DNA of 64,000 nucleotides from Flavivirga algicola (GTDB lineage: Bacteria > Bacteroidota > Bacteroidia > Flavobacteriales > Flavobacteriaceae), in the NCBI RefSeq assembly GCF_012910715.1, contig NZ_JABBHF010000004.1, forward strand, positions 186,001-250,000, in the 5' to 3' direction. The notes beneath the pieces were generated by a model. The model worked only from the letters and a program-made list of their open reading frames with translations. It was not told where the DNA came from and made no database searches. A program made the position numbers and the translations under genes. The first letter of the stretch is position 1. Each line of letters starts with the position of its first letter. Shown one piece after another: positions 35,161 to 46,080 of the stretch.

Positions 35161-36354
35161 CTACAAATTTAGATTAGAATCAATTTTCTCTAAATGAATT
35201 ATTTTAGAACTCAATTCCATTCTGTCAATACCGCTTACTTCAAATAAAACTTTATAGTACTTGGGGATTTCTCCAAACTTATTTTTCATGGCTTTTTCCA
35301 ATTCAATAGCCAATTCATAATCGGTAAAATGCTTGAAGCTTTGAGAAGCGCCAGTGTCCCAGATGCCTCCAAAAAGGTAAATAGTATTATTACTATTAGC
35401 TCCCGGAACCTTTAATAGAATGGCATAATCTGTATGATATTTATCAGCATCACCGTTAGCAATATATGTTTCGTGCTTTTTTAAGTTCCCATTCCAATAG
35501 TTCAGTTTACTGTCATTAATTGAATAACCTTCTTTGTTGATGTAATCTTTAAAAAGTCCGAGTGTTTTTATCATACCAACTACGACCAAATCATTATCAG
35601 GTAATTCTTTTGGATTGAAACGTGACATGGTTCTAATGACAAAATCTTTTTCTGCCTCATAAAATACTTCGCTTAGATCTTTAACCCATAGTGCACTATT
35701 TCTAATTAAGAAACTGTAGCTTAAAGACTCAAAAGCAATACCCTTGCGAGTATAAACAGACTTAATGGTGTCAAATTCTTCCGGTGAATTTATTGAAGGA
35801 TCCCTAACAGTTTTAACCTGACCAGTAATTGAATCTGTTTCTTCATATATAAAAAGATCGCCTAAGACCATCATAGTATTATTTTTACTGGCAAAAAGAT
35901 CGCTCCAAAGTTCGGTTTGGCGGACCTCATTGGTTCTGTTTCTAGCAATATCAAACAAAAATGGAATAGCAATAACAGATAAAATAATTAAAGTGACCCA
36001 TACCTTGTTATATGATTTCTTTTTGGCAAGCTGATCGTCTTTTTTTATAAATTGAACCTTATAACTTCCCTTGGGTATTTTTAGGACGGTAGTGTCATTT
36101 ATGCCTTCATTTTCATAATAACCAGCAAGCTTTTTTCTTAAGTTATAAACATAAACCCTAATTAAAGTACTTTGGGAAGGGTCAAATTGTTCCTTTCCAA
36201 AGATATCATTTGCAATGGTTGTCTCTTTAGGAATTTGAGATTCTATAGTACATTCAACCAGATAACGAAATAGATTAGCATAGGTGTCCGAGCGACCAAA
36301 CGATTTGCTGGCAATAATAGTTTCGACTATGCTTGAATAATGCTCTTTTTCCAC
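35161..36354 (-). CDS. Membrane-anchored winged-helix regulator
   Basis: A 397-residue protein with a cytoplasmic DNA-binding domain (residues about 1-103), one membrane helix (about 117-135, VWVTLIILSVIAIPFLFDIA) and a 260-residue C-terminal domain that would be periplasmic. The N-terminus follows the winged-helix pattern common in Acidobacteria and Planctomycetes: LFRYLVECTIES, TIANDIFGK, FDPSQSTLIRVYVYNLRKKL and VLKIPKGSYKVQF. The layout resembles ToxR/CadC one-component sensors. The C-terminal domain is not recognised; it may sense a ligand or a partner. It is divergent from the PSD1 operon across a short region holding an inverted repeat, so it probably regulates that operon. Confidence 0.7.
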   Translation of the reverse strand: MEKEHYSSIVETIIASKSFGRSDTYANLFRYLVECTIESQIPKETTIANDIFGKEQFDPSQSTLIRVYVYNLRKKLAGYYENEGINDTTVLKIPKGSYKVQFIKKDDQLAKKKSYNKVWVTLIILSVIAIPFLFDIARNRTNEVRQTELWSDLFASKNNTMMVLGDLFIYEETDSITGQVKTVRDPSINSPEEFDTIKSVYTRKGIAFESLSYSFLIRNSALWVKDLSEVFYEAEKDFVIRTMSRFNPKELPDNDLVVVGMIKTLGLFKDYINKEGYSINDSKLNYWNGNLKKHETYIANGDADKYHTDYAILLKVPGANSNNTIYLFGGIWDTGASQSFKHFTDYELAIELEKAMKNKFGEIPKYYKVLFEVSGIDRMELSSKIIHLEKIDSNLNL

Positions 36355-36394
36355 TGGGAAATATAAAAATATAAAGATAGTAATTATAATTATT

Positions 36395-36413
36395 AACAGT
36401 TAATGAAACTGTT
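36395..36413. promoter_or_regulatory. Inverted repeat, candidate operator for the PSD1 operon
   Basis: AACAGTT-AATGA-AACTGTT is a perfect 7-bp inverted repeat in the divergent intergenic region, 32 bp upstream of the -7 element of the PSD1 operon and 41 bp upstream of the regulator start. Its position suits control of both genes. Confidence 0.45.
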
Positions 36414-36444
36414 TCAAGCTACCATAAGTACCGTATTGAATCTA

Positions 36445-36452
36445 TATATTTG
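36445..36452 (+). promoter_or_regulatory. -7 element of the PSD1 operon
   Basis: TATATTTG fits TAnnTTTG. It overlaps an in-frame TTG at 36450, which therefore cannot be the start, and supports the ATG at 36471. No TTG is found at -33, which would fit a promoter needing an activator. Confidence 0.55.
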
Positions 36453-36470
36453 GGATTCTTAGTATTAGGT

Positions 36471-39400
36471 ATGGCAAAACTGAAATTTTATTTTACGGTC
36501 TTTTTTTGTGCGCTTTTGTTTCTCGGTTGCAACTGGAATTTACCAAAAGAAGTAGAAGTTGAATATGCAAAACTTCCAGATAAGATAGATTTTAATTATC
36601 ATGTAAAACCTATACTGTCAGATAAATGTTTTGCTTGCCATGGCCCAGATAAAAATAACCAAAAAGCTGGTCTTAGGCTCGATATTGAAGCAGATGCCTA
36701 TCGGGCATTAAAAAGTGGTAATCATGCCATAGTTCCAGGAAGTTTATCTAAAAGCGAGATGGCAACTAGAATTTTTTCTAAGGATCCTGAGATCATGATG
36801 CCTCCACCCGAATTTAATGTTACATTAACTCAAAAGGAAATAGCCACACTTGTTAAGTGGATTGAACAAGGAGCCGAGTATAAGCCACATTGGTCTTTTA
36901 TAAAACCAAAAAAAATAAAAACCCCTAAAGTAAAGGATGCGGAACAAAGCCCTATTGATTTTTTTGTTGCAGATAAATTAAATAAGAGTAAGTTGTCTCC
37001 CTCAGAAAGAGCATCGAAAGAAACATTAATTAGGCGAGTTAGTTTTGGTTTAACAGGGTTGCCGCCTACACTTGAACAAATAGAAAATTTTGCAAACGAT
37101 ACTTCTAAAGATGCCTACAAAAATTTAGTAGAGAGGTTACTGGCTTCTCCAGAATATGGTGAGCGTATGACGGCCAATTGGTTAGATGTGGCTCGTTATG
37201 CTGATAGTGATGGGTATTTGGATGATAAACATAGGGATTTTAGTCCATGGCGCGATTGGGTTATTCATGCTTTCAACAATAATATGCCGTATGATGAGTT
37301 TGTAACCAAACAATTAGCAGGAGATTTAATTCCTGATGCAACTACAGAAAGTATATTAGCTACAGCATTTAATAGATTGCATAGAAAAAACTCTGAGGCA
37401 GGTATTGTTTTTGAAGAATTTAGAACAGAATATGTAGCTGATAGAACCGCTACAGTATCAAAGGCGTTCTTAGGACTAAGTGTAGAATGTGCCAGATGTC
37501 ATGACCATAAATACGATCCAATTAGTCAAAAGGATCACTATAAGTTGTCTGGGTTTTTTAACAGTACGAACGAAATAGGAACTGCTATTTATGGACCTGG
37601 TCAGACACCAGGTCCGTCATTATTGTTAACCAATGATGAACAAAAAGACGTCATAGATTTTATTAACACCAAAATAGAAGGGACAGAAAAAAAGTTAATC
37701 AGAATTGAAAATATAGATACTGATGCTTATAACACGTGGGCTTTAAGGTCAAAAAAAGTCTATCAATCTATCGCAAAGGAAGCCCGAAGGGGATTGGTGG
37801 ATTATTATCCTTTCGACAATTTTTTAGATAAAGGGAATGGGGTTTATACCAGCGCCAATAAATTGGCAAAGAATAAAATTGCAAAAATAAAAGAACCTAT
37901 AATAAAAAAGGGCGCAAAAAACAAAGGAGTTTTTCTCAATGAATTTACAACGATTAAACTTCCTAAAAGAACAGGTTGGTTCGATCATACAGATCCTTTT
38001 TCTGTAGCAATATCTGTTTTTCCAGATACTATTTATGAAGAGGCAACACTTTTTTATCATTGTGAAGATCTTAGGTATGGTTTAAAAGGCTATTCACTAT
38101 ATCTAAATGAGAATCGATTGAAATTTATTATGGCTTACTCATGGCCTAACAATGCTATAGAAGTCATAACAAAAGACCCAATTCCTAAAAAAGAATGGAG
38201 CAACATTACAATATCCTATGATGGTTCTGGTAAGGCAGATGGCATCAAAATTTTCAGTAATGGAAAGGAAGTTCCATTAGATATAAAATTAGACAATTTA
38301 TATAAATCTATTCTTCATAAAAAAAGTGTCCACACCTTTAACTTTCCTGGATTTGGATTGGGCAATAGAAATAAAATGAAAACTTTTGTGAATGGAGGTA
38401 TAGATGAGCTGAAGATTTATAATAAGCAATTAACGGAACTCGAAGTACTGTACCATCAATCCCCTAATAGTTTAAAAACGGTTCTTGAAAATATTAATGC
38501 TGAGAAAAATAAAAAATTATTGACCAAGTACTATAATAATTATCATAATTCATCATCAAAACAGGTTAAAGAAGGTTTACGGGCTCTTAAGAAAGAGCTT
38601 ACGATGCATGTAGATAGTATTCCAGAAATTATGGTTTTGGGGGACTTATCAGAACCACGACCAACCTACGTTTTAGATCGTGGGGCATATGATGCTTTAG
38701 GTGAAGAAGTACAACCAGGTGTTCCCGAAGCCGTTTTGCCGTTTTATGATACTTTGCCAAAGAATAGGTTAGGTTTTTCAAAATGGTTATTTGACAAAGA
38801 TAACCCGTTAACTGCACGTGTGTTTGTAAATCGTATCTGGCAAATGCATTTCGGAAGAGGTATAGTGGCCTCATCTGAAGATTTTGGAAACCAAGGCAGC
38901 TTACCATCACATCCAGAACTGTTGGATTGGTTAGCGGTAACATTTATGGAGTCTGGCTGGGACATTAAAAAGCTTCATAAATTAATAGTGATGTCTGCTA
39001 CCTATCAACAAACATCTAAAGTAAATGAAAAATTGTTGGAAGTAGATCCAGAAAATGTATTACTGGCTAGGGGGCCAAGTTTTAGGTTGCCAGCAGAAAT
39101 GGTTCGCGATAATGCCTTGGCTATAAGCGGATTGTTGTCTAAAAAAATAGGGGGACGCAGCGTTTATCCATATCAACCAGAAGGATTATGGGAGGAGCTA
39201 ACTACTAAAGTGTGGCGCTATAAATATAAATTGGAGACAGACGAAAATTTATATAGGAGAAGTATGTATACCATATGGAAACGTACCTCGCCACCACCTT
39301 CGATGACTATTTTTGATGTCGGAGATAGAAGCGTGTGTACCGTAAAACGTAGACAAACCAGTACCCCTTTGCAAGCTTTAGTACTTTTAAATGACCCTCA

Positions 39401-39707
39401 ATTTTTGGAAGCCGCTAGAGTGCTGGCTGAAAATGTGATTGATGTCTACGAAAAGGATACTATTAAACAATTAAAACAAGCCTTTAAAATTAGTACAGGC
39501 AGACTCCCAAATAATAAGGAACTTGATATTCTGGAAAGGTTTTATACTGATGAGGTACGACGATTTTCTAATAAAAAAGATGAAGCACAAGCATATTTAA
39601 ATATTGGAAATTACAAATCAAAAACTAATAATTCGATAGAAATTGCTGCCTTGGCAACAGTTATTAATGGGATAATGAATACAACAGAAGGTTATACGCT
39701 TAGATAA
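36471..39707 (+). CDS. PSD1/planctomycete cytochrome c domain lipoprotein
   Basis: About 1078 residues from the ATG at 36471 (lipoprotein signal YFTVFFCALLFLGC, Cys 20). Domains in order: planctomycete cytochrome C with CFACH (about 53-57, heme c binding); DUF1549 (about 165-370, with NWLDVARYADSDGY and a second heme-like motif CARCHDHKYDP); a LamG-like beta-sandwich (about 500-660, FNFPGFGLGNRNKM, GGIDELKIYNKQL); and DUF1553/PSD1 (about 720-1070, LTARVFVNRIWQMHFGRG, SATYQQTS). This order is typical of Planctomycetes. The function is unknown. It begins a four-gene operon, 6 bp before the DUF1501 gene. Confidence 0.88.
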   Translation: MAKLKFYFTVFFCALLFLGCNWNLPKEVEVEYAKLPDKIDFNYHVKPILSDKCFACHGPDKNNQKAGLRLDIEADAYRALKSGNHAIVPGSLSKSEMATRIFSKDPEIMMPPPEFNVTLTQKEIATLVKWIEQGAEYKPHWSFIKPKKIKTPKVKDAEQSPIDFFVADKLNKSKLSPSERASKETLIRRVSFGLTGLPPTLEQIENFANDTSKDAYKNLVERLLASPEYGERMTANWLDVARYADSDGYLDDKHRDFSPWRDWVIHAFNNNMPYDEFVTKQLAGDLIPDATTESILATAFNRLHRKNSEAGIVFEEFRTEYVADRTATVSKAFLGLSVECARCHDHKYDPISQKDHYKLSGFFNSTNEIGTAIYGPGQTPGPSLLLTNDEQKDVIDFINTKIEGTEKKLIRIENIDTDAYNTWALRSKKVYQSIAKEARRGLVDYYPFDNFLDKGNGVYTSANKLAKNKIAKIKEPIIKKGAKNKGVFLNEFTTIKLPKRTGWFDHTDPFSVAISVFPDTIYEEATLFYHCEDLRYGLKGYSLYLNENRLKFIMAYSWPNNAIEVITKDPIPKKEWSNITISYDGSGKADGIKIFSNGKEVPLDIKLDNLYKSILHKKSVHTFNFPGFGLGNRNKMKTFVNGGIDELKIYNKQLTELEVLYHQSPNSLKTVLENINAEKNKKLLTKYYNNYHNSSSKQVKEGLRALKKELTMHVDSIPEIMVLGDLSEPRPTYVLDRGAYDALGEEVQPGVPEAVLPFYDTLPKNRLGFSKWLFDKDNPLTARVFVNRIWQMHFGRGIVASSEDFGNQGSLPSHPELLDWLAVTFMESGWDIKKLHKLIVMSATYQQTSKVNEKLLEVDPENVLLARGPSFRLPAEMVRDNALAISGLLSKKIGGRSVYPYQPEGLWEELTTKVWRYKYKLETDENLYRRSMYTIWKRTSPPPSMTIFDVGDRSVCTVKRRQTSTPLQALVLLNDPQFLEAARVLAENVIDVYEKDTIKQLKQAFKISTGRLPNNKELDILERFYTDEVRRFSNKKDEAQAYLNIGNYKSKTNNSIEIAALATVINGIMNTTEGYTLR

Positions 39708-39713
39708 TTTATT

Positions 39714-41180
39714 ATGGACGAATTGACAAGACATTTAAAATTTGCGGATACCCGAAGAGGGTTTTTAAAAAAAGCATCCTTGGGGTTTGGTTCTATAGCC
39801 CTTTCATCAATGTTGGGGCCAACAAATGCTTTTGCAAATACATTGATAGGGAATGATAAGAATCTTGGAGGTGGTATATTAAATGGAACACATTTCCCTG
39901 CAAAGGCCAAAAGGGTTATTTATCTTTTTCAAAGTGGTGCGCCATCTCAATTAGAGACTTTCGACTATAAACCTGCTTTGGCCAAATGGCACGGGAAGGA
40001 AATTCCAGCATCTGTTAAAGGAATGCAACGTAACTCTGGAATGGTTACGAATCAATCATCATTTCCTTTGGTTAAATCTATTTTCGATTTTAAGCAGCAT
40101 GGACAATCTGGTGCTTGGGTCAGTGAAATTTTTCCATATACAGCTAAGATGGTTGACGACCTTTGTATAATAAAATCCATGTATACAGAAGCTATAAATC
40201 ATGAACCAGCTGTTATGTTTATGCAAACTGGGTCTCAATTAGGGAGCAGACCATCCATAGGCTCATGGCTAAGTTACGGATTGGGAAGCGATAATAAAAA
40301 CTTGCCAAACTTTGTGGTGTTATTATCTAAAGGCTCGGGCGCACAACCTTTAAGCTCGGCAGCTTGGGGAAATGGTTTTTTACCTTCTCACCACCAGGGA
40401 ATTCAATTTAGGTCTGGCAAAGATCCTGTATTGTATTTAAATAACCCCGAAGGTGTTCATGATGAGGATAGAAGAAGGGCCTTGAATTATATAAGTGACC
40501 TGAACCAACATCAATACGATATTTGGAAAGACCCCGAAATACAATCAAAAATTGCGCAATATGAAATGGCTTATAGAATGCAAAGTTCCATACCAGAGGC
40601 CGTAAATACTAAAGAAGAACCTGAGCACATTTATAAACTTTATGGTGAAGACGCGAGAATTCCTGGAACTTATGCGGCAAATTGTTTGCAGGCGAGACGT
40701 TTGGCAGAGCGTGATGTGAAGTTTATTCAACTTTACCATACAGGTTGGGACCAACATGGTAATCTACCAGGGGGGATTAAAAGACAAGCAAAGGATACTG
40801 ACCAGGCGACAGCAGGCCTGTTGCAGGATTTAAAGCAGCGTGGACTTCTGGAAGATACCTTGGTAATATGGGGTGGAGAATTTGGACGAACGAGTTTTTC
40901 TCAAGGACGTCTTACGGCAACAAGTTATGGGAGAGATCATCATCCAGGGTGTTTTACCATGTGGATGGCTGGAGCAGGTGTTAAACCAGGCATGGTATAT
41001 GGCGAAACCGATGAGTTTAGTTATAATGTATTGCGAGATGGTGTTCATATCCATGATTTTCAGGCAACGTTACTACATCTTTTAGGCATAAATCATGAAA
41101 AGCTAACATTTAAGCATCAAGGCAGGCGTTATAGGTTAACAGATGTCCATGGCAGGGTTGTCAAAGATATTTTGGCTTAA
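39714..41180 (+). CDS. DUF1501 protein with Tat signal
   Basis: A 488-residue protein with a twin-arginine signal (TRRGFLKKASLGFGSIALSS), so it is exported folded. The body is DUF1501, a sulfatase/alkaline-phosphatase-like fold: VIYLFQSGAPSQLETFDYKP, the EINHEPA-like AINHEPAVMFMQTG, GGEFGRTSFSQG, GRDHHPGCFTMW, and the C-terminal IHDFQATLLHLLGINHEKL. In Planctomycetes DUF1501 genes follow DUF1549/DUF1553 genes, exactly as here. The substrate is unknown. It is second in the operon. Confidence 0.88.
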   Translation: MDELTRHLKFADTRRGFLKKASLGFGSIALSSMLGPTNAFANTLIGNDKNLGGGILNGTHFPAKAKRVIYLFQSGAPSQLETFDYKPALAKWHGKEIPASVKGMQRNSGMVTNQSSFPLVKSIFDFKQHGQSGAWVSEIFPYTAKMVDDLCIIKSMYTEAINHEPAVMFMQTGSQLGSRPSIGSWLSYGLGSDNKNLPNFVVLLSKGSGAQPLSSAAWGNGFLPSHHQGIQFRSGKDPVLYLNNPEGVHDEDRRRALNYISDLNQHQYDIWKDPEIQSKIAQYEMAYRMQSSIPEAVNTKEEPEHIYKLYGEDARIPGTYAANCLQARRLAERDVKFIQLYHTGWDQHGNLPGGIKRQAKDTDQATAGLLQDLKQRGLLEDTLVIWGGEFGRTSFSQGRLTATSYGRDHHPGCFTMWMAGAGVKPGMVYGETDEFSYNVLRDGVHIHDFQATLLHLLGINHEKLTFKHQGRRYRLTDVHGRVVKDILA

Positions 41181-41227
41181 ATTAATTTAAAAGTATTACG
41201 AATCATTTTTTTGAATAATATTAAAAC

Positions 41228-42313
41228 ATGCAGAAAACATCTATAGGTAGACGTAACTTCATAAAATCTTCATCAATAATAACCGTTGGGACAGTCCTGG
41301 CTCCAACTACAATGTCTTCTTTTAATATTTTACCATCAAAACCTGAGCTATCAAAAGATATTATAGGACATGGGGATTATCGTTATCGTGTAGAGAAAAA
41401 CTGGAGTGATCTTAATCCGAAAAATCACCCTGTAAAGAATTGTCATGAAATGGTTATGGATAGGAAGAAACGTCTTTTCCTGTTAACCGATCATCCAAAA
41501 AACAATGTGCTTGTTTATGATAAATCAGGAAAACTAATAAATAGTTGGACACTTCATTTAAAAGGTGCTCATGGTTTAACAATTCATGATGAAAATGGAA
41601 GTGAATTTCTTTATATTACAGATCCGAGTAATGGACGTGTTTTAAAAACCACATTGAATGGTCATATTGTTTTAGAAATTAAAAACCCACAAGAAGCAGG
41701 CGTATATAGTAAATACAAACCCTATAAACCAACCGAAACAGCCATAGGGCCTAATGGCGACATTTATGTCGCCGATGGCTATGGATCTCAATTCATTCTT
41801 CAGTATAATGGTAAAGGTGAATTTATTAGAAAGTTTGGAGGCGATAGTTTTTTGCAACCCGATAAATTTAAACAAGCACATGGTGTTGCTTTAGACACCA
41901 GAGACCCAAACAATCCCACACTAATTTGTTCTGCAAGAATTAAAAATTCCTATAAACGGTTTTCCTTAGATGGGAACTATATTGAATCATACTATATACC
42001 AGGTGCTTTTATAAGTAGACCTGTTATTGATGGTGATGACATTTATTCGGCCGTTTGTTTCGGTATGGAAAAGGACAATTATAACATGATGATGAATAAA
42101 GGTTTTGTGACCATTATGAATAAAGAAAATATAGTAGTATCCAACCCAGGAGGAAGCAAACCAAAATATAAAAACGGAAAATTAGATTTGATTTTACAAA
42201 AGGAACCTGTCTTTAAACAGTGTCATGATGTATGTGTAGACGATGATAAAAATTTGTATGTATGTCAATGGAATGCCGGAGGTGTATATCCTTATAAATT
42301 ACATAGAGTATAA
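41228..42313 (+). CDS. NHL/6-bladed beta-propeller protein with Tat-like signal
   Basis: A 361-residue protein. The N-terminus (GRRNFIKSSSIITVGTVLAP) is a Tat-type signal. The rest has propeller blades of NHL type: KKRLFLLTDHPKNNVLVYDK, HGLTIHDENGSEFLYITDPS, AIGPNGDIYVADGYGSQFIL, and HGVALDTRDPN. NHL proteins bind partners or small ligands; some are lyases or lactonases, and no active site can be named. It is third in the operon, 47 bp after the DUF1501 gene and 3 bp before the next gene. Confidence 0.8.
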   Translation: MQKTSIGRRNFIKSSSIITVGTVLAPTTMSSFNILPSKPELSKDIIGHGDYRYRVEKNWSDLNPKNHPVKNCHEMVMDRKKRLFLLTDHPKNNVLVYDKSGKLINSWTLHLKGAHGLTIHDENGSEFLYITDPSNGRVLKTTLNGHIVLEIKNPQEAGVYSKYKPYKPTETAIGPNGDIYVADGYGSQFILQYNGKGEFIRKFGGDSFLQPDKFKQAHGVALDTRDPNNPTLICSARIKNSYKRFSLDGNYIESYYIPGAFISRPVIDGDDIYSAVCFGMEKDNYNMMMNKGFVTIMNKENIVVSNPGGSKPKYKNGKLDLILQKEPVFKQCHDVCVDDDKNLYVCQWNAGGVYPYKLHRV

Positions 42314-42316
42314 TTT

Positions 42317-43723
42317 ATGGAAGCTTCAAACCAGGTATCTGAATTTGTTATTTTCATAGGCAGATTTCATCCGTTAATCGTACATCTTCCGATCGGTATT
42401 TTATTAATAGGAATACTCATGCATTTTCTTGCAAAAAAGAAGCGGTTTCAATATTTAGATAAAGCGGTTTCGTTTACATTGGCTATAGGATCTATTAGTG
42501 CTATTCTTTCCTGTTTTCTAGGGTATTTATTATCGTTTCAAGGGGGGTATGATGCCGATGCTCTTTTTAACCACCAATGGTTGGGGATAGCGGTGGGCTG
42601 TTTTTCATTGTTAGCCTATAGTACAAGGGTCTGGAAAAAGACTCGAAAGTCGTTTGTCTTAAATTCAATTGCGATGGGTATCCTTTTTATTGGTTTGGGG
42701 TTAACAGGACATTTAGGAGGCAACTTAACTCATGGATCTGCCTATCTCACACAATATGCACCAGAACCAATTAGAAAAATAATAGGATTGGCTCCAAAAC
42801 CTAAAAAACGTCCTCCAATTATGGTTTTAGATTCTGCAGATATATTTTTAGATGTCATTAATCCTATGGTTTCTAATAAATGTATCAGTTGTCATAATTT
42901 AGAAAAAACTAAAGGTGGTTTGTTGCTTACATCGCATGCTTCCATGTTAGAAGGAGGAGAAAACGGGCCCGCGATTGTTGCAGAGGATTTACAAAAGAGT
43001 GAGCTGTTTAAAAGAATAACACTACCAGAACATCATGAAGATTTTATGCCTCCCGAAGGAAAAAAACCTTTTTCTGAAGATGATATAAAACTTATTGAAT
43101 TTTGGATTTTAAATGGAGCACGTCCAACAGGCTTACTGGCAGATATAGAGCTTGATGAAGATAATACGAAACTTTTCGAAAATTTTCTGGGTTTGAAAGA
43201 CAGCCAAAATAACCCGCTATTAGCAGATGCGGAAGCAGGAGATTCTTTGGTTATTAGGTCGCTTCGTTCTAAAGGATTTAAAATAGAAAGCCTAAGTAAT
43301 GAAAGTAATTTGTTGGATGTAAGCTTGTCTCCTAATAATATAAAAGGATTGGAAAGTATTGAAGAGCTCCTTTTGCTAAAAGATCAAATAGTACATTTAA
43401 AATTAAGCAGCCTAGGATTAAAAGATAATAACCTCAAGGTTATAGGGCAATTGAATCATTTAATAAGGTTGAATTTACATTCTAATCCCATAACAGATTC
43501 AGGTATTTCGTTTTTGTCTGAATTACAAAATTTAGAATCGTTAAACCTTTATGGTACTCAGATAGAAAATAAAAGTCTGGAACTATTGTCTACATTAAAA
43601 AACTTAAAACGATTGTACGTGTGGAATACTAAAGTTACAAAAGCTAAGGTTGAGGCATTTAAAAATTCACGTACAGATTTGGATATTATTTTTGGGCTCG
43701 CTCTCTTTATTGTGAAAGAATAA
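42317..43723 (+). CDS. DUF2231 membrane protein with cytochrome c and LRR domains
   Basis: A 468-residue fusion. Residues about 10-145 hold four membrane helices of DUF2231 type (FIGRFHPLIVHLPIGILLIG, with histidines that could bind heme b). Next comes a planctomycete cytochrome c domain with CISCH at 189-193 and the closing FMPPEGKKPFSEDDIKLIEF. Residues about 340-460 are leucine-rich repeats (LSSLGLKDNNLKVIGQLNHL, LESLNLYGTQIENKSLELLS). It could move electrons between membrane and the periplasmic cytochromes of the same operon; this is inference. Last gene of the cluster. Confidence 0.82.
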   Translation: MEASNQVSEFVIFIGRFHPLIVHLPIGILLIGILMHFLAKKKRFQYLDKAVSFTLAIGSISAILSCFLGYLLSFQGGYDADALFNHQWLGIAVGCFSLLAYSTRVWKKTRKSFVLNSIAMGILFIGLGLTGHLGGNLTHGSAYLTQYAPEPIRKIIGLAPKPKKRPPIMVLDSADIFLDVINPMVSNKCISCHNLEKTKGGLLLTSHASMLEGGENGPAIVAEDLQKSELFKRITLPEHHEDFMPPEGKKPFSEDDIKLIEFWILNGARPTGLLADIELDEDNTKLFENFLGLKDSQNNPLLADAEAGDSLVIRSLRSKGFKIESLSNESNLLDVSLSPNNIKGLESIEELLLLKDQIVHLKLSSLGLKDNNLKVIGQLNHLIRLNLHSNPITDSGISFLSELQNLESLNLYGTQIENKSLELLSTLKNLKRLYVWNTKVTKAKVEAFKNSRTDLDIIFGLALFIVKE

Positions 43724-44300: not shown

Positions 44301-44906
44301 CTAGTGCAACACTTGCTTTTTTTTAAAATAAGAAGGAAGTATTTCTGTATAGTATTTTTCAGTAAAATATGGATAAAAATCAGGAATAAACAGTGAGTTT
44401 ATGCTCAAATCTTTTTTTAAAATGAAAATAAGAGGTTGATGGTTTATGCCTTTTGAAAATCCAAATTCATTATCATTACAATAAACAGTGTTGGTTATAA
44501 GTTTAGATATATTCTCATCAACATATTTTTTAAAATCACTTTCAGTTTTGAAGTTTCCTATAAACAGAAATTTATCTTTATTTATATTGCTGCTAAGAAT
44601 ATCGAAATAGTTAAGAGCTTCTAGGATACAGCTATTACAGTTGCCATCAGTAACATATAAAACAATTTTATCTTCGTTTATTGAACTTAATTTTTTTGAA
44701 CCTTCCTCACTAAGTTTGGTATTCTTGTATCCATAGGTTATTAGTTTTTCTAAACTGTTTATATAATGCTTTTTGTTTTCTAGAGATTCATGGTTAAGAA
44801 TTTTGACTTCTTTTAATTCTTGATTCAAATAGACTTGTCCATAGCCCAAATAAAAACAAATAAAAACTAATATGATAATAGACAAGTATAGATGTTTTTT
44901 CTTCAT
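44301..44906 (-). CDS. Membrane-anchored CxxC thioredoxin-like protein
   Basis: A 201-residue protein with one N-terminal membrane helix (about 5-22, HLYLSIIILVFICFYLGYGQ) and a periplasmic part. After a helical linker comes a thioredoxin-like strand with a CxxC: IVLYVTDGNCNSCILEAL (Cys 90 and 93). Later strands (KFLFIGNFKTESDFKKYV, GFSKGINHQPLIFILKKD, with a proline near the cis-Pro position) fit the fold. It may reduce or form disulfides. It starts 5 bp after the propeller lipoprotein stop, third in the cassette with the four-cysteine peptide, a possible substrate. Confidence 0.6.
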   Translation of the reverse strand: MKKKHLYLSIIILVFICFYLGYGQVYLNQELKEVKILNHESLENKKHYINSLEKLITYGYKNTKLSEEGSKKLSSINEDKIVLYVTDGNCNSCILEALNYFDILSSNINKDKFLFIGNFKTESDFKKYVDENISKLITNTVYCNDNEFGFSKGINHQPLIFILKKDLSINSLFIPDFYPYFTEKYYTEILPSYFKKKQVLH

Positions 44907-44911
44907 TTTAA

Positions 44912-46003
44912 TTAATTGGAATTTAGTTTAGTTAAATCGTATCTTCTAATAATATTATTTTCAAACAAACTAGTTGTGTATAAATAACTATTTTCTTTAT
45001 CAACATCAAAAAAATCAAAATGACTATCTAACTTACATCTTGCTATTGGTTTTCCATGCCAATCAAAAATATGGATTTCCGGGATAAAAGATTCCAAAGG
45101 GAAGTTGTTTTTAATAAAAGTATTGTAATCTGCATTATATATTTGAACAAAAATATAATCATTATTGGCTTTAATACCCCATGAAAAGACTTTAGTTTTA
45201 TCCAAGGGTTGATCAGTTTTAGATAATTTATTTATCTTTAGATTTTTTTCTAAGGTTGGAAAATATTTATATTCCAATGTTATAGGTCTTTTTCTGTTTT
45301 GTGAGATGTTAAATATTTCTATTCTTCCCATAGTGGAGTACGTTCTTACAAATTTTTTATTATCTGGTTTGATAGTCATATAGCAAGAGTAAACTTCTCT
45401 TTTTGTGTGACTATCCATACGAGGATAATCATTTAGGTATTCTGCAAAATTTTCTAATAATGATTCACTATTGTCATATTTAAAAAGATCTATATTGTTG
45501 CCGTAAGGTGCACCAAATATTAATGAATCCTTTGCATATATAATATCTCTAAATGAATTCAACTTTGGGGGTAATTTTGAAATTTTGTATGGCGTAATAT
45601 TCTTATTAAGTAAATCCTGTATTTTATAATATTGTATATTAGTCATTTTATTACCCATCGCAAAAGTAGCAGTTTCATTATGAACAGGTTTAAAAGTTTG
45701 AATTGAAGCCGAATTAAACTCTAAAGGGCCATTACCTTTATTTCCAAAACTATATAAATGATTAAAGCTTGGTAATTTAAATATTGAAAACATTGAGTCT
45801 TTTCTTTTTTGGCTAATAACAAAAAAGGAATCAATGACTAATACCCTATTTACATTTAAAGTGTTAGATGCTAATTGAATTTTTTTTGATACCAGATCAA
45901 CCTCTTTTGGGAATTTTTCTATTATATAATCAGGTTTTATTCTATTATTATTACAACTTGCAATTAAAATGCTCATTATAAATAGACAAATGATTTCTTT
46001 CAT
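44912..46003 (-). CDS. 6-bladed beta-propeller lipoprotein (BF3164-like)
   Basis: About 363 residues from the ATG at 46003 (EIICLFIMSILIASCNNN, lipobox cysteine in IASC); an upstream ATG at 46042 would spoil the signal. The mature part has propeller-type blades (HLYSFGNKGNGPLEFNSASI and IHIFDWHGKPIARCKLD) like the 6-bladed propeller proteins, often called BF3164-like, that accompany NVEALA peptides in Bacteroidota. The function is unknown; binding of the peptide is an inference. It lies between the peptide gene (77 bp upstream) and the CxxC protein gene. Confidence 0.65.
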   Translation of the reverse strand: MKEIICLFIMSILIASCNNNRIKPDYIIEKFPKEVDLVSKKIQLASNTLNVNRVLVIDSFFVISQKRKDSMFSIFKLPSFNHLYSFGNKGNGPLEFNSASIQTFKPVHNETATFAMGNKMTNIQYYKIQDLLNKNITPYKISKLPPKLNSFRDIIYAKDSLIFGAPYGNNIDLFKYDNSESLLENFAEYLNDYPRMDSHTKREVYSCYMTIKPDNKKFVRTYSTMGRIEIFNISQNRKRPITLEYKYFPTLEKNLKINKLSKTDQPLDKTKVFSWGIKANNDYIFVQIYNADYNTFIKNNFPLESFIPEIHIFDWHGKPIARCKLDSHFDFFDVDKENSYLYTTSLFENNIIRRYDLTKLNSN

Positions 46004-46080
46004 ATTTTTGATTTTAAATTTAAAAACCATTGAAGGAATCAATGGTTTTATAGAATTTTATTTTTAAGATGACAATGATT

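What the first reader, a model, noticed from the sequence alone, without database searches (positions are those of the whole stretch)
35161..43723. Planctomycete-style PSD1/DUF1501/propeller/cytochrome-LRR operon with a membrane-anchored regulator
Seen: four co-directional genes with gaps of 3-47 bp, encoding a PSD1 heme protein, a Tat-exported DUF1501 protein, a Tat-exported beta-propeller and a DUF2231-cytochrome c-LRR fusion, divergent from a one-component winged-helix protein with a membrane helix. Known: DUF1549/DUF1553/DUF1501 clusters are abundant in Planctomycetes and largely uncharacterised. Inference: the operon is a periplasmic redox system for an unknown substrate, switched on by the regulator, and may have been acquired from a planctomycete-like donor, since the regulator's DNA-binding domain is also of a type common there.
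Basis: partly seen in the sequence, partly recalled or inferred. Interest (0 to 1): 0.7.

Follow-up and report, generated by a model that had tools for sequence, protein, structure and literature searches.

The report
Sugar-linked redox operon with dedicated switch
A flavobacterium carries a small, common but uncharacterised set of exported heme and hydrolase-like proteins, and next to it sits a membrane-anchored switch protein whose likely DNA target can be read from the genomes, which makes this family's function testable.

Summary
Gene content is confirmed: REG (winged-helix-like, one membrane helix), PSD1 (lipoprotein, two CxxCH motifs, LamG insert), DUF1501 and NHL propeller (both Tat), DUF2231-cytochrome-LRR; gaps 6/47/3 bp. 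The set is modular: PSD1-DUF1501 is the core, NHL common, DUF2231 optional. It is ordinary in Flavobacteriaceae (PSD1 in 79 of 299 genomes). A recent planctomycete donor is not supported: trees put this subtype in a Bacteroidota clade, apart from PVC/Acidobacteriota.

What is new is the switch. REG orthologues (37% identity or more) flank PSD1-DUF1501 divergently in 20 of 20 loci from 14-15 genera; the closest homologue without PSD1 is 36% identical. All 20 intergenic regions carry TTAACWGTTAAYRAAACWGTTT or a close variant (window 36393-36414), and in 16 genomes scanned other copies are at background level. Two loci found after the motif was defined carry it too. REG is most likely a dedicated local regulator.

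Neighbours (SusCD, ThuA, Gfo/Idh/MocA, UxuA, TRAP) and REG paralogues beside SusC-like, GH2, GH115 and sulfatase genes point to sugar or sugar-acid catabolism. In the genus, 2 of 12 species carry the island. Best reading: a periplasmic respiratory sugar-processing module under its own membrane sensor; substrate unproven.

The parts
35161..36354 (-). REG: one-component regulator (N-terminal winged-helix-like domain ~1-105, membrane helix ~115-139, ~250-aa extracytoplasmic domain)
   Evidence: Trans_reg_C below cut-off; alignment A3; hydrophobic segment; topology inferred
36393..36414 (.). Predicted REG operator TTAACAGTTAATGAAACTGTTT: two AAC-N-GTT dyads 12 bp apart
36445..36452 (+). Promoter-like TATATTTG upstream of PSD1 (Bacteroidota -7 type TAnnTTTG, consensus recalled)
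   Evidence: inference
36471..39707 (+). PSD1 lipoprotein: PSCyt1 heme domain, PSCyt2/DUF1549 with second CxxCH, LamG lectin-like insert, PSD1/DUF1553 (ORF listed from TTG 36450)
39714..41180 (+). DUF1501 protein, Tat leader, alkaline-phosphatase/sulfatase superfamily fold
41228..42313 (+). NHL-repeat propeller, Tat leader
42317..43723 (+). DUF2231 membrane domain + PSCyt1 cytochrome + LRR

Best explanation
REG is a membrane-spanning one-component regulator dedicated to the operon beside it. It binds the tandem AAC-N-GTT dyads between the two genes; the site lies about 45-66 bp upstream of the predicted PSD1 transcription start (activator position) and 38 nt upstream of its own start codon (autoregulation). 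Its extracytoplasmic domain senses a saccharide-related signal. The operon encodes a periplasmic module: the PSD1 protein, a lipoprotein with two heme motifs and a lectin-like insert, and the Tat-exported sulfatase-fold DUF1501 protein are the catalytic core. The propeller assists, and the DUF2231-cytochrome protein, where present, passes electrons to the respiratory chain. The module oxidises or otherwise processes a sugar or sugar acid, whose product enters dedicated uptake and catabolism. Shown by computation: gene content, conservation, operator, lineage, superfamily of DUF1501. Inferred: binding, activation, signal, electron flow, substrate class.
For: REG next to and divergent from PSD1-DUF1501 in 20 of 20 orthologue loci; 19 were found or re-found by searching with REG itself or its DNA-binding domain, one (L157) only through DUF1501. 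Operator in 17 of 17 intergenic regions; 18 of 18 in a second count without the window, shuffled mean 0.000; exact at G569. Across 16 genomes the pattern with <=2 mismatches gives 21 hits: 15 at this intergenic region (12 exact) and 6 elsewhere, all with 2 mismatches; the reversed-pattern control gives 4. Neighbours of this subtype (20 loci): ThuA 7, LacI 5, SusC 5, DctM 4, DUF6807 4, Gfo 3, UxuA 2, versus 1, 3, 8, 0, 1, 2, 0 of 56 other Bacteroidota PSD1 loci. One clade member without REG (L151) has an IlvD/EDD dehydratase, GntP permease and FAA-hydrolase-type gene beside the pair. Some REG paralogues lie beside or near SusC-like receptors, GH2, GH115, sulfatases and 3-keto-disaccharide hydrolase.
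Against: No binding, expression or enzyme data. In the window no marker sugar gene lies within about 8.5 kb; the neighbours are nusA, infB and respiratory ActA-type genes. The marker genes were picked from the regulator-type loci themselves, so the comparison is biased, and several loci are from one genus. Neighbours vary (arabinose isomerase, uronate-type, sulfatase genes), so no single substrate emerges. The '20 of 20' depends on where orthologues are cut off: a 36% homologue (G912, 194 bits, against 272 bits for the weakest of the 15 family orthologues) lies beside a TonB receptor, not PSD1. Some paralogue neighbours are not carbohydrate genes (an M16 peptidase, an Ig-like protein, one with no Pfam match). 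The PSD1 core has no PDB relative by sequence, and the fold hits shown look like matches to its lectin-like insert, so oxidation is not shown. DUF2231 is adjacent in only 6 of 20 loci.
Confidence: 0.58

Rival explanations
1. The operon is a stress or envelope-maintenance redox system rather than a catabolic one; REG senses envelope conditions, not a sugar.
For: In Rhodopirellula baltica a PSD1/PSC2 gene was reported as the suggested target of an ECF factor up-regulated under three stresses (passage of PMC2754498). The window copy sits among housekeeping and respiratory genes.
Against: Other lineages place it beside sugar uptake and catabolism genes, and several other PSD1 clusters have a local AraC, LacI or two-component regulator beside them (families checked), as carbohydrate loci do.
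Confidence: 0.2
2. PSD1-DUF1501 acts hydrolytically: DUF1501 is a sulfatase-like or phosphatase-like enzyme and the hemes are structural or auxiliary.
For: DUF1501 matches sulfatases by profile (E 5.9e-7) and fold (sulfamidase 4miv E 2e-6, though TM only about 0.35). True sulfatase genes lie near 3 of 20 regulator-linked loci, directly downstream in L154 and L314, and near 7 of 56 other Bacteroidota PSD1 loci at the marker threshold.
Against: The sulfatase C/S-x-P-x-R signature is absent from all 25 aligned DUF1501 sequences; the apparent equivalent site holds a His (H163) in all 25, though that register has no statistical support (E 0.28). The invariant heme motifs of PSD1 would be unexplained.
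Confidence: 0.28
3. The island was acquired recently from a planctomycete-like donor.
For: PSD1-DUF1501 pairs are widespread in PVC bacteria (26 of 32 non-Bacteroidota loci have PSD1 directly before DUF1501); the island is absent from 10 of 12 congeneric genomes.
Against: Nearest relatives of both proteins are Bacteroidota; all 20 REG-linked loci are in Bacteroidota genomes; NHL and DUF2231 companions were not seen above 60 bits in those 32 loci (weaker DUF2231 hits at L207 and L224).
Confidence: 0.03

Closest known systems
PSCyt/PSD1 gene clusters of Planctomycetes and Verrucomicrobia
   Same: PSCyt and PSD domains combined in one gene, some with lectin-like modules, usually next to an unknown gene family (PMC5615132, section 13 read)
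   Different: Many Bacteroidota loci add NHL propeller and DUF2231-cytochrome-LRR genes, and this subtype adds a dedicated membrane regulator with a conserved operator
ToxR/CadC-type membrane one-component regulators (recalled)
   Same: N-terminal DNA-binding domain, one membrane helix, C-terminal extracytoplasmic domain
   Different: Trans_reg_C model below cut-off, no PDB relative by profile, own operator type, and several of its paralogues sit in carbohydrate loci
Polysaccharide utilisation loci of Bacteroidota
   Same: Local regulator divergent from an exported gene set; several relatives lie beside SusC/SusD
   Different: No SusC/SusD marker beside the window copy; a 2024 review of hemicellulase regulation names HTCS, ECF sigma/anti-sigma and carbon catabolite repression as the three commonly used systems (passages of PMC10766802)

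Membership tests
PSD1/PSCyt2 heme proteins (PF07587, PF07583) | Both domains above Pfam cut-off | tested here: met
   348.2 and 285.8 bits, cut-offs 28.5 and 29.8
PSD1/PSCyt2 heme proteins (PF07587, PF07583) | Heme attachment motifs | tested here: met
   CxxCH at 60 and 347; C60, C63, H64, C347, C350, H351 invariant in 30 sequences; heme itself not measured
DUF1501 (PF07394) | Domain above cut-off | tested here: met
   530.7 bits, cut-off 27
Alkaline phosphatase/sulfatase superfamily (DUF1501 as member) | Shared fold | tested here: met
   hhalign E 5.9e-7 over the C-terminal 93 columns; Foldseek E 2e-6, 130 matches at E<=0.001 (50 shown), TM about 0.35, on a model of mean pLDDT 70.7
S1 sulfatases (DUF1501 as sulfatase) | C/S-x-P-x-R formylglycine signature | tested here: not met
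   0 of 25 sequences; apparent equivalent site reads H-x-P-A in most, register unsupported statistically
OmpR/ToxR/CadC-type regulators (Trans_reg_C) | Trans_reg_C domain above cut-off | tested here: not met
   14.2 bits against 26.2
OmpR/ToxR/CadC-type regulators (Trans_reg_C) | Single membrane helix between DNA-binding and outer domain | tested here: met
   One hydrophobic segment, 115-139
Polysaccharide utilisation locus | Adjacent SusC/SusD pair | tested here: not met
   None within 8.5 kb of the window copy by the markers; SusC at 5 and SusD at 3 of 20 loci of this subtype
Planctomycete-derived island | Nearest relatives in Planctomycetota | tested here: not met
   Trees

The most novel reading that the evidence does not exclude
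REG defines an undescribed class of membrane-spanning carbohydrate regulators in Bacteroidota, of which many read a tandem AAC-N-GTT operator, and the PSD1-DUF1501 pair it controls is an unrecognised respiratory (oxidative) route for breaking down saccharides, running in parallel to glycoside hydrolases.
Probability: 0.3. Interest if true: 0.75.

Novelty: new variant of a known kind. Interest (0 to 1): 0.45.

Why it matters
PSD1-type proteins are numerous and uncharacterised (a 2009 paper says each of the two domains is represented 41 times in R. baltica; [quoted passage not shown] A subtype with its own regulator and a readable operator in 14-15 genera gives a direct handle: find the inducer, find the substrate. 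If the oxidative reading is right it adds a redox step to bacterial carbohydrate turnover.

Tried and rejected
Planctomycete donor: rejected on trees and on a domain search in 20 genomes. Both are quick trees with a few long branches (L093 most of all); the root is not known. The same two loci are missing from the tallies.

Solved structures: the PSD1, DUF1501 and REG searches gave nothing useful beyond PSCyt1 resembling hydrazine-synthase and FoxE cytochromes and the insert resembling an S-layer domain. For the PSD1 model (mean pLDDT 82) the 50 rows shown are proteins with concanavalin-type lectin-like or sialidase domains, e.g. arabinanase AbnA domain 4 and clostridial neurotoxins and their receptor-binding domains. 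The listing gives no query ranges, so that the LamG insert is what matched is my inference; it is a sugar-binding-module resemblance only. NHL gave weak NHL-propeller hits.

The idea that DUF1501 has a His in place of the sulfatase formylglycine was read from alignments; a targeted profile comparison returned the same register but without support (E 0.28). My first tally suggested no sulfatase near the regulator-type loci; a check with eight sulfatase queries and Pfam found them at 3 of 20, so I raised the hydrolytic rival slightly and lowered the main reading slightly. The operator test read one strand only and missed G751; one search read both.

Literature searches: DUF1501 (10 papers), DUF1501 with DUF1553 (0), PSD1-related pairs (3), PSCyt terms (8, several unrelated), one-component regulators in polysaccharide loci (4), 3-keto-glycoside routes, DUF1553/DUF1549/PSD1 (1). 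I read passages of three papers (one section in full); the rest I saw as listings only. None of what I saw gives a function for PSD1-DUF1501 or describes REG; subscription journals are largely not held.
Full report
WHAT IS THERE. Pfam gives PSCyt1, PSCyt2/DUF1549, Laminin_G_3 and PSD1/DUF1553 for the first operon gene, DUF1501 for the second, NHL for the third, and DUF2231 + PSCyt1 (with LRR models below cut-off) for the fourth; the divergent regulator (REG) has only a sub-threshold Trans_reg_C match. DUF1501 and the propeller carry twin-arginine motifs, PSD1 has two CxxCH motifs, the DUF2231 protein has one, and REG has a single hydrophobic segment at 115-139; gaps are 6, 47 and 3 bp. Both PSD1 heme motifs are invariant in the 30 PSD1 sequences aligned. 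The listed TTG start of PSD1 lies inside a promoter-like TATATTTG; ATG 36471 gives a clean lipoprotein signal (the promoter consensus is recalled).

HOW COMMON. PSD1 is found in 79 of 299 genomes of the same family, with up to 8 copies shown (scoring stops at 8 candidates); the window's own genome has three loci. The pair PSD1-DUF1501 is the constant core: 26 of 32 non-Bacteroidota loci tallied from the scan have PSD1 directly before DUF1501 (two further loci without a usable ORF were dropped). Nine of 56 Bacteroidota loci without REG have all four genes in the window's order. Several other clusters have AraC-, LacI- or two-component genes beside them instead of REG (families checked for examples).

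THE REGULATOR-LINKED SUBTYPE. REG was sought in 397 family genomes: 31 have a match, of which 15 (the window included) are 38-100% identical and the rest at most 34%. All 15 lie beside and divergent from PSD1-DUF1501. Five more orthologues behave the same way: G581, a Saprospiraceae and a Seonamhaeicola genome, a Cyclobacterium genome and G751 from another family of the class. That is 20 of 20 loci: 11 genera in the family plus three or four more (Seonamhaeicola may be one of the 11). The nearest homologue not beside PSD1 is 36% identical, in G912, at 194 bits against 272 for the weakest of the 15. The NHL gene is present in 17 of 20 (not L140, L154, L314) and DUF2231 is adjacent in 6 of 20; all four in order only in the window, L095 and L142 (the stretches of L154 and L157 end soon after the cluster). 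In L137 the REG gene is broken by a stop.

THE OPERATOR. The REG-PSD1 intergenic regions share TTAACWGTTAAYRAAACWGTTT or a close variant: 17 of 17 examined. Scanning 16 genomes with an orthologue (those of L154 and L157 were not scanned), with up to 2 mismatches, gives 21 hits: 15 are in this intergenic region (12 exact, 1 with one and 2 with two mismatches) and 6 are elsewhere, all with two mismatches; the pattern read backwards gives 4 hits. G491 has no hit at that stringency, but its region holds a looser copy. The Cyclobacterium and G751 loci, found after the motif was defined, match the degenerate core exactly and with 2 changes. In one search, 18 of 18 PSD1-linked loci (window and L137 not included) have the core with <=2 changes, against a mean of 0.000 in mononucleotide shuffles; of 31 other REG homologues 12 have it, against 0.03 expected, some of them near-duplicates. 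Related sequences are not independent, so these figures overstate significance. The site is 36393-36414 in the window, 38 nt from the REG start codon and 30 bp upstream of the promoter-like element of PSD1, a position that fits an activator of PSD1 that also controls itself (inference).

CONTEXT AND FUNCTION. Around the 20 loci of this subtype tallied (including L151 and L152, which belong to the clade but show no REG; L286 and L314 were found later and are not in the tally): ThuA-like 7, LacI 5, SusC 5, TRAP DctM 4 (DctP 3), DUF6807 4, DUF7133-cytochrome 4, Gfo/Idh/MocA 3, UxuA 2, sulfatase 0 at that threshold; in 56 other Bacteroidota PSD1 loci: 1, 3, 8, 0 (0), 1, 0, 2, 0, 7. With eight sulfatase queries, sulfatases appear near 3 of the 20 REG-linked loci (L139, L154, L314). 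L151 has an IlvD/EDD-type dehydratase, a GntP permease, an FAA-hydrolase-type and a GSDH-like gene around the pair. The markers were chosen from these loci, so the comparison shows association, not enrichment by a blind test. REG paralogues: of the 9 nearby proteins scanned, three are GH2, one GH115, one a sulfatase fused to a gluconolactonase-like domain, one a 3-keto-disaccharide hydrolase, one a BNR protein, one an M16 peptidase and one has no match; of 10 divergent neighbours that I chose from the 22 listed, eight have CarboxypepD_reg-like domains and six of these a TonB-receptor barrel or plug (SusC-like), one is a sugar-type MFS transporter and one an Ig-like protein; three further ones are a LacI regulator, a solute symporter and a sulfatase. 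Hence REG looks like one branch of a family of largely carbohydrate-locus regulators. This agrees with the suggestion for Verrucomicrobia that PSCyt gene products, if involved in carbohydrate degradation, act on mono- or oligomers (PMC5615132, section 13 read).

FOLDS. DUF1501 matches sulfatases by profile (E 5.9e-7), and its model (mean pLDDT 70.7) matches sulfamidase, LtaS and alkaline phosphatase in the PDB at good E-values but TM of only about 0.2-0.4; the sulfatase signature is absent from 25 of 25 aligned sequences. The PSD1 model (mean pLDDT 82.0) gave, in the 50 rows shown, only proteins with lectin-like or sialidase domains.

ORIGIN. In the DUF1501 tree (109 rows) the 18 REG-linked rows plus L151 and L152 form one set with 97% SH-aLRT support, among Bacteroidota; 32 PVC, Acidobacteriota, Armatimonadota and Actinomycetota-labelled rows form a separate set with one Bacteroidota MAG (support 93). 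In the PSD1 tree (103 rows) the smallest starred sets around the window hold only this subtype, the largest of 17 rows (15 REG-linked and 2 further Bacteroidota, presumably L151 and L152; support 99); the place of the other four REG-linked rows was not printed. The REG DNA-binding domain was found in 4 of 20 named-record genomes: 2 of 4 Acidobacteriota, 2 of 7 Bacteroidota (one of them already known to have REG), 0 of 5 Planctomycetota, 0 of 4 Verrucomicrobiota. In the genus, 12 genomes were examined: the window's species and G581 carry the island between infB and the SPOR/ActA genes (window), the other 10 have infB and SPOR/ActA without it, and those 10 lack a REG orthologue (two have a 30% paralogue). 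The simplest history is one gain in the ancestor of the two species, from another bacteroidotal source. No tRNA lies at the site, and none of the eight ORFs scanned between infB and ActA matches an integrase.

JUDGEMENT. The module is a known but uncharacterised kind; the regulator subtype with its operator is, within the searches made, undescribed.

Noticed in passing
window 44301-46042 (-): A small gene of thioredoxin-like look (no Pfam match over cut-off) and a TolB_like 6-bladed propeller gene occupy the place where G581 and six of the ten other congeners have a phage-tail-Collar-type protein between the island or infB and the SPOR gene; local GC falls to about 26%.
   Followed up: partly
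L137:9513-10697: The REG gene of G569 is split by an in-frame stop while its operator is exact: a natural regulator-loss case. Described only.
   Followed up: no
L157:535-12513: In the Seonamhaeicola genome one REG lies between two divergent PSD1-DUF1501 pairs, one of each subtype.
   Followed up: no
L287:9312-10550, L288:9113-10264: REG paralogues (about 30%) of two congeners sit between a SusC/SusD pair and an 880-aa exported-looking protein and have a TTAACGGT-type inverted repeat near their start.
   Followed up: partly
window 39714-41180 (DUF1501 residue H163): A His found in 25 of 25 aligned sequences, with the spacing H-x8-T-G, sits where sulfatases seem to have C-x-P-S-R...T-G; no statistical support but worth a structural test.
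   Followed up: partly
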